From: Thermogemmatispora onikobensis
Lineage (GTDB): Bacteria; Chloroflexota; Ktedonobacteria; Ktedonobacterales; Ktedonobacteraceae
Direction: 5' to 3'
NCBI RefSeq assembly: GCF_001748285.1
Contig: NZ_BDGT01000034.1
Span: 1 to 64,000, forward strand
DNA: 64,000 nucleotides
The notes below the pieces were generated by a model. The model was not told the origin of the DNA, did not search any database, and was given only the letters and a program-made list of their open reading frames with translations. Position 1 is the first letter of the stretch. Each line of letters starts with the position of its first letter. The position numbers were made by a program, and so were the translations under genes. Below, in pieces: positions 794 through 8,916 of the stretch.

Positions 794-1030
794 TCCTTTC
801 AGCCCAGCGTAGCAGGTTGGAACCTGGCCAGGCCCAGATCAGGGCGCTGTTGATTGACAGGTTGACCTGCCTGTGGCAGAATGGGGCTGCTCTCCTCGCC
901 CGCGGCAATCGTAGGGCCGTCGTCGCACCATTCCACCGATGGCGCTCTGGCTCCTCTCGCTCCGCAAGGACAACACAGCGAGGAGGAGAATTTCCGTCAG
1001 ACGCGAGGAGACTCAAGGTCGTTGAGCGGC

Positions 1031-2365
1031 ATGATGTACCAGAAATCGTCTCAGAGCCTCCTGGACGCGGCTATAGAGCAGAGTCTACCCAAGGATATCC
1101 TTTCGTCAAGCGCCAGGCTCCTCGAGCAGGCAACGTTCTTGCTGCAAAAAGGCCGGCGCACATCTGCAGGGCACCTCGACTTGCAGAGGAGGGAGCGCAC
1201 CAGCCTCTTTCCATGGCGCGGCCAGTTCTCTCCACAACTGGTCGAGCTGCTTTTGCAGCGTTATGCAGAGCAGAGAACTGTCGTCCTGGACCCCTTTGTG
1301 GGCAGCGGTACCACCCTTTTTGAAGCAGCCCGCCAGGGCCTGAGCTGCTACGCCGCAGACATCAATCCGGCAGCGGTGGCGTTGTCGCAGACAGTCTACT
1401 TTGTTCGCCTGACACCCTCTGAACGCCAAGATCTGATCCAGGAGGCGGAATCTCTTTTAAAGAAAGCGCTGCAGTCCGCCTTTATAGATCTTTTCTCCTT
1501 TAGTGATATTGAACCTAGGATTGATGACTATTCCCACCCCAAAGAAGAAATCATACTTTCTCTAAAAAAAGATACGAATAATCATCTTTTAAGAATTATA
1601 CTAGTCAACACACTAATGAAATATTTTGAAAACAAAAACAAAAAGGGAAATAACTGGTATACATCTTTCCATGAGCTGGCTGCGATTATCAGAAATCTAC
1701 CCTATAGTGTTGCCCAATATCATATCTTTCACAATGATGCCCGCTCCTTACCGTTGGCCAATACCAGCGTTCAGTTGATCGTGACCTCCCCACCCTACAT
1801 CAATGTCTTCAACTACCACCAAAACAATAGACCTCTCATGGAGAGATTAGGCTGGAATCTTCTTACCGTTGCTCAGTCCGAGATTGGAGCCAACCGCAAA
1901 CATCGTCAAAACAGATTTTTAACAGTGATTCGGTACGCTTTAGACATGCTAGCAGCCCTGCGAGAAATGCGTCGCCTGCTTGCCGAGGATGGGCATCTCA
2001 TCATTGTCATTGGTCGCGAGTCAACCATCCGTGGTGTGCGGCTTGGCAACAGCAGGCTGATCACCGCGCTCGCGCTAGGAGGGGCCGGTCTAGAGCTGGC
2101 CTCGGTCGAAGAACGGAAGTTTCTCAATAAGTTCGGGGAGGTGATCTACGAGGATGTGCTTCATCTGACACCGACCTCTCTTCCTCCTGCCTTCAACGAT
2201 GAACTTGCCCGTTCTTTAGCTCTTTGTCTCCTGAGAGATTCCTTCCAGCAAAATTATGAAGATGCACCTACGAACCAAGAGATCCTGGAAGCCATCAGCA
2301 AAGCCCGCTGCGTTGATCCATCGCCTCTTTTCAATCCCGAGCATGCCATCGGAGGGTTCCTGTGA
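1031..2365 (+). CDS. site-specific DNA methyltransferase (amino type, probably N4-cytosine)
   Basis: 444-residue SAM-dependent DNA methyltransferase. Visible motifs, numbered from 1031: a motif X-like segment (GQFSPQLV, about 64-71), motif I DPFVGSGTT (87-95) and motif IV TSPPY (252-256); TSPPY is typical of N4-cytosine enzymes. The stretch between motifs I and IV (about 1440-1740) is much richer in A and T than the surroundings and codes a Lys/Asn-rich insert, a sign of horizontal transfer and a likely specificity region. The start is uncertain: the ATG pair at 1031/1034 and a TTG at 1022 follow a GAGGAG near 1004, while an in-frame ATG at 881 would add a low-complexity N-terminus. The next short frame overlaps by 4 nt (GTGA), as in restriction-modification operons. 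Confidence 0.82.
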   Translation: MMYQKSSQSLLDAAIEQSLPKDILSSSARLLEQATFLLQKGRRTSAGHLDLQRRERTSLFPWRGQFSPQLVELLLQRYAEQRTVVLDPFVGSGTTLFEAARQGLSCYAADINPAAVALSQTVYFVRLTPSERQDLIQEAESLLKKALQSAFIDLFSFSDIEPRIDDYSHPKEEIILSLKKDTNNHLLRIILVNTLMKYFENKNKKGNNWYTSFHELAAIIRNLPYSVAQYHIFHNDARSLPLANTSVQLIVTSPPYINVFNYHQNNRPLMERLGWNLLTVAQSEIGANRKHRQNRFLTVIRYALDMLAALREMRRLLAEDGHLIIVIGRESTIRGVRLGNSRLITALALGGAGLELASVEERKFLNKFGEVIYEDVLHLTPTSLPPAFNDELARSLALCLLRDSFQQNYEDAPTNQEILEAISKARCVDPSPLFNPEHAIGGFL

Positions 2366-2487: not shown

Positions 2488-2653
2488 GGCAACGGTCCTT
2501 GATCAGGGTTACTTCTGATGCCCAGTTCGCCAGGCGAAGCGCAGATTACTGCCTCGCCCGTCCATAGCCAGGCGCTTGCACCTACGCCCTGGCATTCGCT
2601 AGAATGATCACAAAGCAAAGTGTAGATTGGATCGTACTCTCTACGAGCATTCT

Positions 2654-3274
2654 ATGTCACGCATCCCACCGGTTGAAGACAGCCAGTTCTGGCCCGAGGA
2701 CAAGGAGAACGACGCCAGCCAGGCTTTTGCCACCATGCGCGAGCTTTTCCGCGTCATGGCCCACCGGCCCGAGATAGCACGCCAGACCATGCAGCTACTG
2801 CAAACGGTCATGCGCAGCGGTGGCGTTGAGCCGCGCCTGAAAGAGCTGCTGGCCATCCGTGTCTCCCAGGTCAACTACTGCCACTATTGAATGGCCGCCC
2901 ACACTGCCCTGGCAGGGCAGCTAGGCGTCAGTGAGGAGCTGCTGGATGCGCTCTATCACATCGATACTCACCGCCATCTCTTTACGGCGCGTGAGCTGGT
3001 GGCTTTGCGCTTCGCCGAGATCATGACCACCTCGGCCCGCGACATCGACGAAGAGCTATGGGACGAGCTGCAAGCCCACTTTGACGACGGGGAGATCATC
3101 GAGCTGACAATGGTGATTGGCCTCTTTAATTGCTTCAACCGTTTCGCGGATGCTCTTCAGATTGAGCCACCCGCTCGCTCTCAGGGCAAAGGAGAGGCTC
3201 AACGGAGCAGCGGAGAGAAGAAGGATACAAACGCCTATGGCCACGAGCGAGGAGCAACTGAAGGCCCTGATTAA
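2654..3274 (+). CDS. probable selenoprotein of the AhpD/carboxymuconolactone-decarboxylase family (TGA 2888 read as Sec)
   Basis: One continuous frame interrupted only by TGA at 2888-2890. The first part ends in VSQVNYCHY and the second begins MAAHTALAGQLG, so the joined protein reads C76-H-Y-[TGA79]-M-A-A-H83. This is the CxxCxxxH redox motif of AhpD-like peroxidases with selenocysteine in place of the second (attacking) cysteine. The 88-odd residues upstream are the usual helical N-terminus (RLKELLAIRV just before the motif) and the residues after it give the rest of the CMD fold. The product is 206 residues from ATG 2654; a TTG at 2627 could add nine. A hairpin at 2896-2927 lies where bacterial SECIS elements lie. 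TGA is a normal stop elsewhere in the window, so general recoding is ruled out. Inferred role: thiol/selenol peroxidase or oxidoreductase. The last 38 nt overlap the next gene. Confidence 0.78.
2896..2927 (+). promoter_or_regulatory. SECIS-like hairpin directly after the in-frame TGA
   Basis: Lower stem CGCC/GGCG (2896-2899 with 2924-2927), a 4x3 internal loop, an upper stem of 7 bp (2904-2910 with 2914-2920) and the apical loop GGC (2911-2913). The first loop base, a G, is 21 nt after the TGA. Bacterial SECIS elements bound by SelB are hairpins within about 40 nt of the UGA with a G at the start of a small apical loop, so spacing and loop agree. The element lies inside the coding region, as is normal in bacteria. 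Confidence 0.65.
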
Positions 3275-3491
3275 GGACCTGTACGAGTTGTCACGCTACT
3301 TACACAGTCGCGGCGAGCGGTCTTTGAAGCTCGCTCGCCAGTTTGAGGAACATGCCAGGAGCGACCCCAGCAATCGCGAGTTTGATCTGACTCAGGCGCG
3401 GATGCTCGACTATCAGCATCACATCTGGCACGAGATCGGGAATCTGGTGGACCGCCTGCTGCGCCAGTATGATCGACCAGGCTCTGCTTGA
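3237..3491 (+). CDS. small helical protein of unknown function
   Basis: 84 residues starting at ATG 3237, with GAGAAGAAGG 12 nt upstream. It is rich in charged residues and predicted all-helical (EQLKALIKDLYELSRYLH, then RQFEEHARSDP and a final helix ending in LVDRLLRQYD). It overlaps the end of the putative selenoprotein by 38 nt in another frame, so the two are probably cotranscribed. No domain is recognised. An earlier in-frame ATG (3117) lies within the selenoprotein and lacks a ribosome binding site. Confidence 0.6.
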   Translation: MATSEEQLKALIKDLYELSRYLHSRGERSLKLARQFEEHARSDPSNREFDLTQARMLDYQHHIWHEIGNLVDRLLRQYDRPGSA

Positions 3492-5587: not shown

Positions 5588-5656
5588 CCGGACCGGCTGC
5601 GGCAGCACTGCGGTGCTGGTTTTTCTCTGGCCCGCAGCCGGTCCGGTTTCGCTTTT
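5588..5656 (+). terminator. nested double terminator after tRNA-Lys
   Basis: An outer perfect 15-bp stem (5588-5602 with 5632-5646) is followed by TTTCGCTTTT. Inside its loop is a second hairpin, CAGCAC/GTGCTG with a TGCG loop (5603-5618), itself followed by a run of five T. Either hairpin can act as an intrinsic terminator, and they are compatible in one structure. Confidence 0.8.
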
Positions 5657-5891
5657 CCGCCGCCTCTTGTCGCCACCAACACCTTCTTGCGGCCAGGCTG
5701 CGGCGGTAGGGAGCGAGGCGGCCAGCATGAGCATCCATCATCGCCAGCCCAGTCAAGGCGTCACCGTACTGACCTTCTGTCAGCCCAGTCACGCGGGAGC
5801 TGTCTCGCTAGCGCAGAGCGCTCCAGCCTGGCAGGCAGCCTGCGCTCAGCCGGACAGCCAGCCCAGCCAGCAAGAGAAAAGGATCGGACCT

Positions 5892-7502
5892 ATGGTGATT
5901 CAAGCGCAGGTCAGGCGACGTACCTACGTTGATTCGATCACGCTGATGCAGATCGCTACGGCCCTCAAAGGGCTGCCTGGCGTCGAGAATGCCGCCGCTG
6001 TGATGGCTACTGAAGCGAATCTTCAGCTACTCGCGGAGGCCGGTCTGCATCCTGGCGAGATAACCGCCGGTGCTGAAGACCTGCTGTTGGTGGTCAAAGC
6101 CGCGCTACCGGAGGCCGCCGGGCAGGCGCTGCAGGCGGCAGAGGAGCTGCTGACTACCCGCCAGCCAAAGAGCCTCTCTTTCCAAGACAGCAGCGGGTCC
6201 CCAGCCGCTGCTGCCACGCAGCCACCACATTCTCTGGAGGAGGCCGTCAGACGTCAGCCCGAGGCTCGCCTGGCCATGATCTCGGTTCCTGGTCCCTACG
6301 CAGCCCTGGAGGCCGAGCAGGCCCTGCGCGCCGGCCTGCATGTCTTTTTGTTCAGCGATAATGTGCCTCTGCAGGAAGAGATTGCCCTGAAGCAGCTGGC
6401 CCAGGAACGAGGTCTGCTGCTGATGGGCCCCGATTGCGGCACTGCCCTGCTCAATGGCATTGGGCTCGGCTTTGTTAATGTTGTGCCTCGCGGCCCTATC
6501 GGTATCGTCGGCGCTTCGGGTACTGGCATTCAGCAGGTGATGTCGCTAATCGCTCAGCAGGGGAGCGGCGTCTCTCAGGTCATCGGCAGCGGTGGGCGCG
6601 ATCTGAGCCGCGAGGTAGGAGCCATGACAACCCTGGCGGGCATCCGTCTCCTCTTGAGGGACGAGGAGACGCGGGTGATCGTCCTGGTCTCCAAGCCGCC
6701 CGCCCCAGAGGTAGCCGCTCGCGTGCTCGAGGAGGCGGCCAGCGGCTCGAAAGCGGTGGTGGCCTGCTTTCTGGGCGCTGACCACGAGGCCCTGGAGCAG
6801 GGCTACGGCAGCCGGGTGGCGGTGGCCCGTACTCTGACCGAGGCCGCTACCCTGGCCGTTCAGCTCGCTGCTACACCCACCTCCTACCATGCGGCTACTA
6901 CGCCCGCCAGTGCCATTGCTGCGCGTCTCGAACGGCTGAGGCAAACCTGTACTGTCTCCTCAGCCAGCGGGCATCTGGTTGGCCTTTTCGCCGGTGGAAC
7001 CCTCTGCGACGAGGCGATGCAGCTCTGGAGCGCCCTGCTGGGACCTATTTATTCAAATATCCCTTTAGAGCCGGCCTGGCGCCTGCGTGAAAGCAGCCTG
7101 ACAGCTCTCCCGGGTCACTGCGCCATCGACTTCGGAGCTGATGAATACACACGCGGGCGCCCCCATCCTATGATCGATCCCTCGCTGCGCCTGCAGGCCC
7201 TTGAGACCGTGGCCGACAATCCGGGCGTCTCCGTGGTTCTGCTCGACCTGGTGCTCGGCTACTGTGCCCATCCCGATCCGGCTGCCATCTATGCCCCCGT
7301 CATTGCCGGACTGCGTCGGCGCGGCCCTCGTCCAGCAATCGTAGTCTCGCTCTGCGGCACCGAGGGTGATCCGCAGCGTCTCTCGGCCCAGGCCGCACGC
7401 CTGCAAGAAGCCGGGGCCACCGTTCTTACGAGCAACGCCGAGGCAGCCCTGCACTGTGTCCAGTTACTCTACGAGCAGGAGGAAAGCGGTGGTCTCGCCT
7501 AG
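5892..7502 (+). CDS. fdrA: FdrA/AllF-family acyl-CoA synthetase-like protein
   Basis: 536-residue member of the FdrA family, related in fold to succinyl-CoA synthetase alpha/beta chains. Visible are an N-terminal region (TYVDSITLMQIATALKGLPG), a Rossmann-type CoA-binding segment with GPIGIVGASGTGIQQ, the RDLSREVGAMTT segment and a C-terminal ligase-like half. In E. coli the homologue is AllF of the AllFGH complex in allantoin/oxamate catabolism, reported to act as an oxamic transcarbamylase. ATG 5892 was chosen because AAAGGA lies 8 nt upstream; the frame is open further up but runs back into the tRNA-Lys terminator. The 3' end overlaps the next gene by 14 nt, so the two are coupled. Confidence 0.85.
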   Translation: MVIQAQVRRRTYVDSITLMQIATALKGLPGVENAAAVMATEANLQLLAEAGLHPGEITAGAEDLLLVVKAALPEAAGQALQAAEELLTTRQPKSLSFQDSSGSPAAAATQPPHSLEEAVRRQPEARLAMISVPGPYAALEAEQALRAGLHVFLFSDNVPLQEEIALKQLAQERGLLLMGPDCGTALLNGIGLGFVNVVPRGPIGIVGASGTGIQQVMSLIAQQGSGVSQVIGSGGRDLSREVGAMTTLAGIRLLLRDEETRVIVLVSKPPAPEVAARVLEEAASGSKAVVACFLGADHEALEQGYGSRVAVARTLTEAATLAVQLAATPTSYHAATTPASAIAARLERLRQTCTVSSASGHLVGLFAGGTLCDEAMQLWSALLGPIYSNIPLEPAWRLRESSLTALPGHCAIDFGADEYTRGRPHPMIDPSLRLQALETVADNPGVSVVLLDLVLGYCAHPDPAAIYAPVIAGLRRRGPRPAIVVSLCGTEGDPQRLSAQAARLQEAGATVLTSNAEAALHCVQLLYEQEESGGLA

Positions 7503-8916
7503 CACGCCAGAGCAACTCAGCCCTTCACCGTTCACCGTCATCAATGTGGGTGCCGAGCTTTTCGCCGAGGCCCTGCGCGCCCAGGGCGTTACTGTGACCA
7601 GCGTGGCCTGGCGCCCGCCCGCCGGCGATCCCGCAGCTTTAGCTCGCCTGCTGGCCGATCCGGCCATCGATCGCGCCAATGAGATCGCCGTGGGGCGCAT
7701 GCTGGCCGCCGAGCCTGTCCTGGTCGACGTCCAGCCCGCCCGGACCATCATCCCTCTCTTCCGCGAGACAGCAGGAGGCTATGCCTTGCTCCACGCCGGC
7801 CCGCCGATTACGTGGGAGCGCATGTGCGGACCCATGCGCGGCGCCATTATCGGGGCCTGTCTCTACGAGGGCTGGGTCCGCAGCGAGGAGGAGGCCGTGC
7901 GCCTGGCGGAGACCGGCAGGATTACCTTCGCTCCCTGTCACCATTATCATGCTGTTGGGCCAATGGCCGGCATCGTCTCGCCTTCTATGCCTCTGCTCAT
8001 CGTAGAGGATAGGGTGCATGGCAACCGCACCTTCGCCCCTCTGAATGAGGGATTGGGCAAGGTGCTCCGTTATGGGGCTTACGCTCCGGAGGTCATTGAG
8101 CGCCTGCGTTGGATGCAAGAGGTGCTCGGGCCGGCGCTGAGCCGGGCCTTGCGCCATGTCGGCGGCCTTGATCTGCGCTCGCTGCTGGCCCAGGCCCTGC
8201 AGATGGGCGATGAGGGCCATAACCGCAATAAAGCGGCTACCTCCCTCTTTCTGCGCCAGCTAGCCCCGGCTCTGGTCGAGACGGGAGCCTCCAGCGCGGA
8301 AACCGCCAGCGTGCTGCGCTTCATCGCCTCCAACGACCATTTTCATCTGAATCCTTCAATGGCAGCGGCCAAGGCCATGACGCTGGCGGGGGCGAACGTG
8401 CCCAATAGCAGCGTGGTGGTCACGATGGCACGCAATGGGGTCGATTTCGGTATCCGTGTGAGCGGGTTGGGCGAGCGCTGGTTTGTAGGGCCGGCCCAAG
8501 CGATTCAAGGCCTCTATTTTGCCGGCTTCGGTCCCGAGGATGCCAATCCTGATATTGGGGATAGCGCTATTACGGAGACCGCCGGGCTGGGCGCCTTCGC
8601 AATGGCTGGGGCCCCGGCCATCGTCCAGTTTATCGGCGGCACACCCGCTGACGCTTTGCGCTATACCCGTGAGATGTACTCTCTGACTGTGACCACGAAT
8701 CCTCAGTTCAGCCTGCCCAGCCTCAACTTCCAGGGAACCCCAACCGGCATCGATATCCGTCAGGTCTGTCGTCTGAATCTGCCACCGGTCATCAATACGG
8801 GCATTGCGCACCGTCTGCCCGGCATTGGTCAGGTTGGGGCCGGTATCGTCCATCCGCCGATGGAATGCTTCACCGCCGCTTTGCAGGCCCTGGCCGATAG
8901 CCGGCAGTCCGTGTGA
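7489..8916 (+). CDS. allG: DUF1116 protein, AllG (YlbE) family
   Basis: 475 residues from GTG 7489, which has a perfect AGGAGG (7477-7482) at 6 nt. The protein shows the DUF1116 pattern: ERMCGPMRGA near residue 110, HHYHAVGPMAGI near 150, and a long conserved C-terminal part with NPQFSLPSLNF and a final HPP. Its E. coli homologue AllG works with AllF and AllH. The 14-nt overlap with fdrA suggests a stoichiometric complex. The third partner (AllH, DUF2877) and the carbamate kinase of the E. coli operon are not downstream: the next gene is a convergent phosphoesterase. Substrate is therefore unproven. Confidence 0.85.
   Translation: MVSPSTPEQLSPSPFTVINVGAELFAEALRAQGVTVTSVAWRPPAGDPAALARLLADPAIDRANEIAVGRMLAAEPVLVDVQPARTIIPLFRETAGGYALLHAGPPITWERMCGPMRGAIIGACLYEGWVRSEEEAVRLAETGRITFAPCHHYHAVGPMAGIVSPSMPLLIVEDRVHGNRTFAPLNEGLGKVLRYGAYAPEVIERLRWMQEVLGPALSRALRHVGGLDLRSLLAQALQMGDEGHNRNKAATSLFLRQLAPALVETGASSAETASVLRFIASNDHFHLNPSMAAAKAMTLAGANVPNSSVVVTMARNGVDFGIRVSGLGERWFVGPAQAIQGLYFAGFGPEDANPDIGDSAITETAGLGAFAMAGAPAIVQFIGGTPADALRYTREMYSLTVTTNPQFSLPSLNFQGTPTGIDIRQVCRLNLPPVINTGIAHRLPGIGQVGAGIVHPPMECFTAALQALADSRQSV

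What the first reader, a model, noticed from the sequence alone, without database searches (positions are those of the whole stretch)
2627..3274. Probable selenoprotein: AhpD-like CxxU active site with SECIS-like hairpin
Seen: two frames in the same phase are separated by one TGA exactly where the second Cys of the AhpD/CMD motif CxxCxxxH belongs (C-H-Y-TGA-M-A-A-H). A hairpin with a GGC loop begins within 6 nt after the TGA and places a G 21 nt downstream, fitting bacterial SECIS geometry. Known: Sec replaces catalytic Cys in several thioredoxin-like and AhpD-like families. Inference: this is one selenoprotein that automatic annotation would split or call a pseudogene, and the genome should carry selA, selB, selC and selD. 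Selenoproteins are little described in Ktedonobacteria.
Basis: partly seen in the sequence, partly recalled or inferred. Interest (0 to 1): 0.88.

Follow-up and report, generated by a model that had tools for sequence, protein, structure and literature searches.

The report
Selenium-containing AhpD-like enzyme in Ktedonobacteria
A gene that looks broken by a stop codon almost certainly makes one intact protein that carries selenium in its active site; most genomes of its bacterial class that we examined keep it in this form, although selenium enzymes of this general type were already known.

Summary
Window 2654-3274 (+) is one AhpD-like gene with an in-frame UGA (2888-2890) at the second Cys of CxxC (C-H-Y-U-M-A-A-H). 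The genome has selA, selB, selD and tRNA-Sec(UCA). Of 47 class genomes searched, 43 hold a close homologue: 42 with UGA at the site (the window's own included), one with TGC. The three genomes with no match at E 1e-10 also show no selA and no tRNA-Sec. A 7-bp hairpin with a GGC loop, 20 nt after the UGA, shows double compensatory changes at three pairs. At the two most variable pairs complementarity holds in 43 of 43 sequences, so the ninth residue after Sec (R, K, G or E) goes with the codons on the other strand of the stem. The 13 Cys-coding versions that we fetched keep only 1-4 of the 7 pairs. Corrections: the start is probably ATG 2654, not TTG 2627, and single-sequence folding energy is not significant; covariation is the evidence. 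AhpD-like selenoproteins have been in print since 2005, so this is a new member of a known kind. Points of interest are the class-wide retention and a conserved small helical neighbour gene, 3237-3491. Selenium insertion itself is unproven.

The parts
2654..3274 (+). AhpD-like (CMD-domain) selenoprotein gene, 206 residues with Sec inferred at residue 79; probable start ATG 2654, stop TAA 3272-3274
   Evidence: Pfam CMD 57.1 bits when read through; the same UGA in 42 of the 43 genomes with a close homologue, the window's own included; conserved N-terminus
2888..2890 (+). in-frame UGA, inferred to encode selenocysteine (last residue of the CxxU motif)
   Evidence: aligned with Cys in 13 fetched Cys-coding homologues and paralogues and in PDB relatives such as 2o4d / PA0269
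2904..2920 (+). apical stem-loop of the bacterial SECIS element: 7 bp, loop GGC at 2911-2913, 20 nt between UGA and loop
   Evidence: 99.6% of 273 cells paired and 3 pairs with double compensatory changes in 39 distinct sequences; fits the published bSECIS constraints that were seen
2896..2927 (+). possible lower stem (2896-2899 with 2924-2927) in one predicted fold of the window sequence; not claimed as part of the element
   Evidence: absent from the consensus structure
3237..3491 (+). 84-residue neighbour gene, overlapping the selenoprotein tail by 38 nt in another frame; predicted two-helix hairpin, no Pfam family over its cut-off, function unknown
   Evidence: found in 40 of 47 genomes, adjacent to the AhpD-like gene in 35 of the 43 that have that gene (coordinates); model pLDDT 93.9

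Best explanation
This is one intact gene for an AhpD-like thiol/selenol oxidoreductase. The UGA at 2888 is decoded as selenocysteine by SelB and tRNA-Sec, which the hairpin at 2904-2920 recruits. (Shown: the UGA, its conservation, the hairpin covariation and the sel genes. Inferred: actual Sec insertion.) In the folded protein Sec79 takes the place of the second active-site Cys of AhpD, next to Cys76. It probably attacks a peroxide or disulfide substrate and then forms a selenenylsulfide with Cys76, which a cellular dithiol reduces. Glu64, Tyr78 and His83 would be the proton relay, as proposed for PA0269 and, with His for Tyr, for M. tuberculosis AhpD. (Inferred from homology; substrate and reductant unknown.) The 84-residue helical protein encoded directly downstream may work with it, as binding partner or regulator. 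(Inferred from gene neighbourhood and co-occurrence only.) The stated confidence is for the selenoprotein claim; for the thiol-peroxidase-type chemistry it would be about 0.6, and for the role of the neighbour about 0.5.
For: Machinery: tRNA-Sec 69.3 bits with tca anticodon, selB 351 bits, selA 579 bits, selD 383 bits, each over its cut-off. selD itself and a formate-dehydrogenase-like gene (below that family's cut-off, matched in pieces) also hold an in-frame TGA; that these are their usual Sec positions is recalled.

Site: 43 of 47 class genomes have a close homologue (118 bits or more); 42 have TGA and one (G018) TGC.

Co-occurrence: the 3 genomes without a match at E 1e-10 (G003, G006, G007) have no selA match and no RF01852 match of 60 bits or more. 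The best one among them, 48.2 bits in G006, is over Rfam's cut-off of 47 but ARAGORN calls it tRNA-Leu. Each of the 42 UGA genomes has selA over cut-off, or a tRNA-Sec match of 60 bits or more, or both.

Hairpin: covariation score 0.313 against 0.156 in shuffles, 0 of 500 as high; cells paired fall from 99.6% to 29-56% when the partner is slid by 1-3 columns. Both most variable pairs are Watson-Crick in 43 of 43. The 13 fetched Cys-coding rows keep 1-4 of 7 pairs in this register.

Selection: dN/dS within the genus is 0.05-0.08 downstream and 0.03-0.10 upstream of the UGA, five comparisons.

Fold: model pLDDT 83.2, folded with Cys at residue 79; the top Foldseek hits in the PDB are AhpD-like proteins, among them 2gmy, 2o4d and 7xw1.
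Against: No protein-level evidence. The hairpin of a single sequence is not clearly more stable than shuffles. Some controls are not in favour: sliding by +1 still gives a covariation score of 0.257, and the number of pairs with a double change (3) is reached by 155 of 500 shuffles. One pair is broken in one homologue, L046. G018 has selA and tRNA-Sec but Cys at the site, and other Cys-coding genomes have selA too, so Sec is not indispensable for this fold. Three incomplete UGA genomes have no selA match (G008, G016, G045; 76-84% complete) and four have no tRNA-Sec match of 60 bits or more (G001, G009, G010, G044). In family f3 the relay Glu and His are replaced (Ala and Gln in L076-L078), so the chemistry may not be uniform.
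Confidence: 0.95

Rival explanations
1. Pseudogene or sequencing error: the TGA is a real stop or a miscalled TGC/TGT.
For: An in-frame stop inside a conserved domain is the usual sign of either.
Against: The same TGA stands in 42 genomes of the class. Downstream dN/dS within the genus is 0.05-0.08. Compensatory hairpin changes are not expected in a decaying gene.
Confidence: 0.01
2. UGA is decoded by another route (general read-through, or a tRNA that inserts Trp or Cys) rather than as Sec; or the cell inserts Cys by way of tRNA-Sec when selenium is short.
For: There is sequence evidence only; charging of tRNA-Sec was not observed in any call.
Against: The position is Cys, never Trp, in the 13 fetched rows without UGA. 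The full sel set is present and the downstream element meets the bSECIS constraints that were seen.
Confidence: 0.03
3. Two separate proteins: termination at UGA and re-initiation at the ATG that follows it directly (TGAATG).
For: TGA is followed directly by ATG in 29 of 43 sequences.
Against: 14 of 43 have AAG, GAG, AGG, CTG or ATC there. The CMD domain is cut in half by the UGA. The covarying hairpin would be unexplained.
Confidence: 0.01

Closest known systems
AhpD-like selenoproteins (COG2128; AhpD-like 1 of the ocean survey; TIGR01926 in the 2026 review table)
   Same: AhpD-like protein with CxxU, Sec at the last position of the motif, SECIS after the UGA, Cys homologues common (PMC1088965, PMC2398784, PMC9312934, PMC13188914: passages only; CxxU is stated for this family in the last three)
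   Different: The window protein falls just under the TIGR01926 cut-off (81.4 against 81.8 bits). Its lineage is kept in most of the Ktedonobacteria genomes searched and usually has its own neighbour gene. COG2128 was not tested.
NF053654, YciW-related (seleno)protein (NCBIfam)
   Same: best NCBIfam match by E-value (94.6 bits, residues 33-170), a model named for Sec or Cys members
   Different: far below the equivalog cut-off of 310 bits: not that protein
PA0269 of Pseudomonas aeruginosa (2o4d, 2ijc) and M. tuberculosis AhpD (1gu9)
   Same: active-site layout: Glu36-Cys48-Tyr50-Cys51-His55 of PA0269 corresponds to Glu64-Cys76-Tyr78-Sec79-His83 here (residues of PA0269 from passages of PMC3141380); PA0269 is among the top Foldseek hits
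   Different: both have Cys where this protein is inferred to have Sec; 1gu9 is only a weak Foldseek match (E 0.45) and has His132 where this protein has Tyr
NF041238, alkylhydroperoxidase-related (seleno)protein (hypothetical protein 1 of the Sargasso Sea)
   Same: AhpD-related, CxxU
   Different: a 357-position model; match 47.2 bits against a cut-off of 175

Membership tests
Bacterial selenoproteins | in-frame UGA at a position that is Cys in homologues | tested here: met
   TGA in 42 of 43 genomes with a close homologue, TGC in one; Cys at this column in 13 fetched rows, 8 nearer homologues and 5 distant ones
Bacterial selenoproteins | bSECIS: loop of 3-9 nt, upper stem of 4-16 bp, G in the first two loop positions, 16-37 nt from UGA to loop | tested here: met
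   loop 3 nt (GGC), stem 7 bp, spacing 20 nt, covarying; constraints from a passage of PMC13188914, whose last constraint, on energy, was cut off and not applied
Bacterial selenoproteins | selA, selB, selC, selD in the genome | tested here: met
Bacterial selenoproteins | selenium present in the purified protein | not testable with these tools
   needs 75Se labelling or mass spectrometry
CMD / AhpD-like superfamily (PF02627) | match over the Pfam gathering score | tested here: met
   57.1 bits against 23
CMD / AhpD-like superfamily (PF02627) | Glu, CxxC (or CxxU) and His relay residues, all-helical fold | tested here: met
   E64, C76, Y78, U79, H83; all-helical model with Foldseek hits to 2gmy and 2o4d
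TIGR01926 peroxidase-related subfamily | curated score cut-off of 81.8 bits | tested here: not met
   81.4 bits for the window protein (81.2 from the longer start); short by 0.4 bit, so not filed there
NF053654 YciW-related (seleno)protein | equivalog cut-off of 310 bits | tested here: not met
   94.6 bits
AhpD-like thiol peroxidase (activity) | peroxide reduction | not testable with these tools
   the weak activity of PA0269 is from a passage of PMC3141380; nothing was measured here

The most novel reading that the evidence does not exclude
A class-wide two-gene selenoenzyme module of Ktedonobacteria: a Sec-containing AhpD-like enzyme that works together with an unclassified two-helix partner protein, and whose coding sequence is partly shaped by its SECIS hairpin (the ninth residue after Sec follows RNA pairing, not protein need).
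Probability: 0.45. Interest if true: 0.55.

Novelty: new member of a known kind. Interest (0 to 1): 0.42.

Why it matters
Read by the standard code this gene would be split or called a pseudogene (inferred; the public annotation was not seen). Of the six NCBIfam models that match it, only the general AhpD domain model TIGR00778 was over its cut-off. The set of 43 UGA sequences and 13 Cys-coding ones is a natural experiment: where UGA is replaced by a Cys codon, the hairpin is absent. It also shows an amino-acid position that follows RNA pairing across unlike residues, which makes a conflict between coding and RNA structure directly testable.

Tried and rejected
Single-sequence folding energy as evidence: not significant, so not used. 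Lower stem: not in the consensus fold, so not claimed. Loss of sel genes as the reason for Cys versions: not supported, since 15 of 15 genomes tested, 11 with Cys and 4 with TGA at the site, have selA over cut-off. Direction of Sec/Cys change: both trees force at least two changes, but the 53-row tree is poorly resolved with bootstraps not settled, and the place of G018 is open in the 24-row tree; no direction is claimed. Pfam for the neighbour gene: nothing over a cut-off (one search was run at E 0.1 and gave only weak, mixed matches). PDB folds for the neighbour: no match at E 0.001; the top ones include helical proteins such as ESCRT-III CHMP1B and arfaptin. Plasmid records: 615 with a match, all under 60% identity. 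Papers searched without finding this gene in a title; PMC12013277 holds none of the terms AhpD, Chloroflex, Ktedono or CMD in its main text.

Dropped rows: L081 and L083 gave no tblastn hit and were not analysed. Many weak matches (under 75 bits) were not fetched, so the 13 Cys rows are a part of what exists. L074 was left out of the trees.

Full report
Observation. The window holds two same-phase frames separated by one TGA at 2888-2890. Read through, they give a single CMD-domain protein: Pfam PF02627 scores 57.1 bits for the whole, 30.2 for the first half and nothing at E 0.001 for the second half. The TGA falls on the second Cys of C-x-x-C, in C-H-Y-[TGA]-M-A-A-H. Most homologues begin M-x-R-[IVLM] at the place of ATG 2654, so that is the likely start rather than TTG 2627. 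The C-terminal tail overlaps the next gene, which starts at ATG 3237, by 38 nt.

Sec machinery. The window belongs to a genome (G000) of 5.56 Mb in 112 contigs. It holds tRNA-Sec (69.3 bits, cut-off 47; ARAGORN tRNA-SeC, anticodon tca), selB (351 bits, cut-off 242), selA (579 bits, cut-off 268) and selD (383 bits, cut-off 125). The other RF01852 match over cut-off in this genome, 51.8 bits, is a tRNA-Leu by ARAGORN. selD has an in-frame TGA in S-C-A-G-[TGA]-A-A-K-M, and a formate-dehydrogenase-like gene (the piece with the TGA scores 176.5 bits, family cut-off 666) has one in Q-A-R-I-[TGA]-H-S-S-T-V. That these are the usual Sec positions of SelD and FdhA is recalled, not tested.

Homologues. 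A search of the 47 class genomes held gave matches in 44 at E 1e-10 or less. In 43 the best match is a close homologue (118 bits or more); the 44th, G017 (58% complete), has only a distant match of 55.6 bits. Codon read-out gives TGA in 42 genomes, the window's own included (43 sequences, as G015 has two contigs), and TGC in G018. Thirteen loci from genome contigs, with titles of Thermogemmatispora, Ktedonobacteraceae, Ktedonobacter, Ktedonobacterales, Thermosporothrix and Chloroflexi, all have a stop at this column (which printed the codon, TGA, for five). Their contig lengths equal those of 13 contigs in the whole-genome set, so they give names, not further evidence.

Co-occurrence. The three genomes without a match (G003, G006, G007) have no selA match and no RF01852 match of 60 bits or more. 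That call shows a gap: 40 genomes have a match of 60.2 bits or more, and the next matches listed are at 52.2 and below. G006's best, 48.2 bits, is over Rfam's cut-off, but ARAGORN calls it tRNA-Leu, as it does the 48.1- and 47.3-bit matches of G009 and G010. Of the 42 UGA genomes, three lack a selA match (G008, G016, G045; 76-84% complete) but have tRNA-Sec matches of 63 bits or more; four lack a 60-bit tRNA-Sec match (G001, G009, G010, G044) but have selA over cut-off. G017 has both selA and tRNA-Sec without a close homologue.

Wider search. In 400 genomes drawn from the phylum, 57 match at E 1e-18 or less. Seven genomes of family f24 carry Cys (TGC or TGT) and G311 carries TGA. Fifteen genomes were then tested for selA and 15 have it over cut-off, so Cys versions are not explained by loss of the machinery. 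On a 24-row tree well-supported branches force at least two Sec/Cys changes; direction is not resolved.

SECIS. In 43 sequences (39 distinct) aligned without gaps from the UGA, the consensus fold is a 7-bp stem with a GGC loop, 20 nt after the UGA. 99.6% of 273 cells form a standard pair. Three pairs show changes on both sides (UA to CG in 4, CG to UA in 16, UA to CG in 11 distinct sequences). The covariation score is 0.313 against 0.156 for shuffles, 0 of 500 as high; cells with a double change are 31 against 9.9, 0 of 500 as high. Cells paired fall to 29-56% when the partner is slid by 1 to 3 columns. Not in favour: the number of pairs with double changes (3) is reached by 155 of 500 shuffles, further pair types are fewer than in shuffles (3 against 5.3), a slide of +1 still scores 0.257, slides of -1, +2 and +3 have one or two pairs with double changes, and L046 breaks one pair. 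Related sequences can exceed shuffles without structure, as the tool warns. The element fits the published constraints of loop 3-9 nt, stem 4-16 bp, G in the first two loop positions and 16-37 nt spacing (PMC13188914, passage). A perfect 7-bp stem with a 3-nt loop occurred at 36 of 14,400 offsets in 24 of these genes, the true sites among them.

Pairing fixes a residue. The variable pairs link the third base of an Ala codon and the first base of a Leu codon to a later codon. CT goes with AGG (Arg) 17 times, TT with AAG (Lys) 14, CC with GGG (Gly) 9 and TC with GAG (Glu) 3; both pairs are Watson-Crick in 43 of 43. The ninth residue after Sec thus follows RNA pairing across chemically unlike amino acids. 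In the 13 fetched Cys-coding rows (8 nearer homologues, 5 distant) 1 to 4 of 7 pairs remain in this register; with equal base frequencies 2.6 would be expected (own estimate). Of the 50 TGA rows, paralogues included, 47 keep 7 of 7 and the others 6, 5 and 3.

Selection. Against five genomes of the genus, dN/dS is 0.03-0.10 over the 56 codons before the UGA and 0.05-0.08 over the 92 codons after it; of three more distant comparisons two were saturated on at least one side.

Protein. AlphaFold, with Cys at residue 79, gives an all-helical model (pLDDT 83.2, pTM 0.76). Top Foldseek hits in the PDB include 2gmy, the debrominase Bmp8 (6ohj), 2o4d and 7xw1, and phmmer finds PA0269. The proton-relay residues of PA0269, Glu36-Cys48-Tyr50-Cys51-His55 (PMC3141380, passages), correspond to Glu64-Cys76-Tyr78-Sec79-His83. 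In family f3 the Glu and His are replaced while C-x-Y-U stays (L076-L078). PA0269 has only weak peroxidase activity and Bmp8 is a debrominase by its PDB title, so substrate and rate here are open.

Neighbour gene. The ORF at 3237-3491 has no Pfam family over its cut-off. A profile built from 27 adjacent copies matches 40 of 47 class genomes. All 40 also hold the AhpD-like gene; by coordinates the two are adjacent in 35 (G018 with Cys among them) and apart in 5 (G008, G012, G013, G037, and G019, where both lie at contig ends). Three genomes with the enzyme show no such gene (G002, G029, G030). It is predicted as a two-helix hairpin (pLDDT 93.9) without close PDB matches, and no Cys is among its conserved columns.

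What is known. AhpD-like selenoproteins were reported from the Sargasso Sea in 2005 (PMC1088965, passages), in the 2006 genome survey (PMC1794560, passages), in the ocean sampling data of 2008 with motif CxxU (PMC2398784, passages) and in two reviews (PMC9312934, PMC13188914, passages). Searches for selenoprotein with Ktedonobacter, Ktedonobacteria with selenocysteine and Thermogemmatispora with seleno listed 2, 1 and 3 papers, none with a title that concerns this gene. Of these only PMC5330540 was opened, for passages: it names Ktedonobacter racemifer in the legend of an AhpC alignment. The library covers open-access papers only, so absence elsewhere is not shown.

Verdict. A real selenoprotein gene as far as sequence can show; a new member of a known kind, with class-wide retention, a pairing-driven residue and an uncharacterised neighbour gene as the points of interest.

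Noticed in passing
L084 (G011:C96:700-2400) and L085 (G016:C606:900-2500): A distant AhpD-like paralogue with an in-frame TGA in C-E-Y-[TGA]-G; 7 of 7 pairs fit the same hairpin register, but the L085 fold is no better than shuffles (192 of 200 as good) and L084 has no Pfam match at E 0.001.
   Followed up: partly
L079 (G002:C230:41300-43000): Another UGA-bearing AhpD-like paralogue (C-G-Y-[TGA]-G) whose predicted hairpin has the same GGC loop.
   Followed up: partly
G000:C37:36858-37796 (L018) and G000:C4:37049-39913 (L132): selD and a formate-dehydrogenase-like gene of the same genome each hold an in-frame TGA, so the genome probably has at least three selenoprotein genes.
   Followed up: partly
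L076, L077, L078 (family f3): The UGA and hairpin are kept while the relay Glu and His of the AhpD active site are replaced by Ala and Gln: possibly a changed function.
   Followed up: no
window 5613-8916 (+): Two overlapping ORFs matching CoA-ligase domains (PF00549, PF02629) and AllG, oxamate carbamoyltransferase subunit (PF06545, 328.8 bits); perhaps a purine-degradation operon (recalled).
   Followed up: no
window 881-2365 (+): DNA methyltransferase-like gene (PF01555, PF02086) upstream of the selenoprotein gene; among the loci held, many with short upstream flanks, it was found only in those of the same genus.
   Followed up: partly
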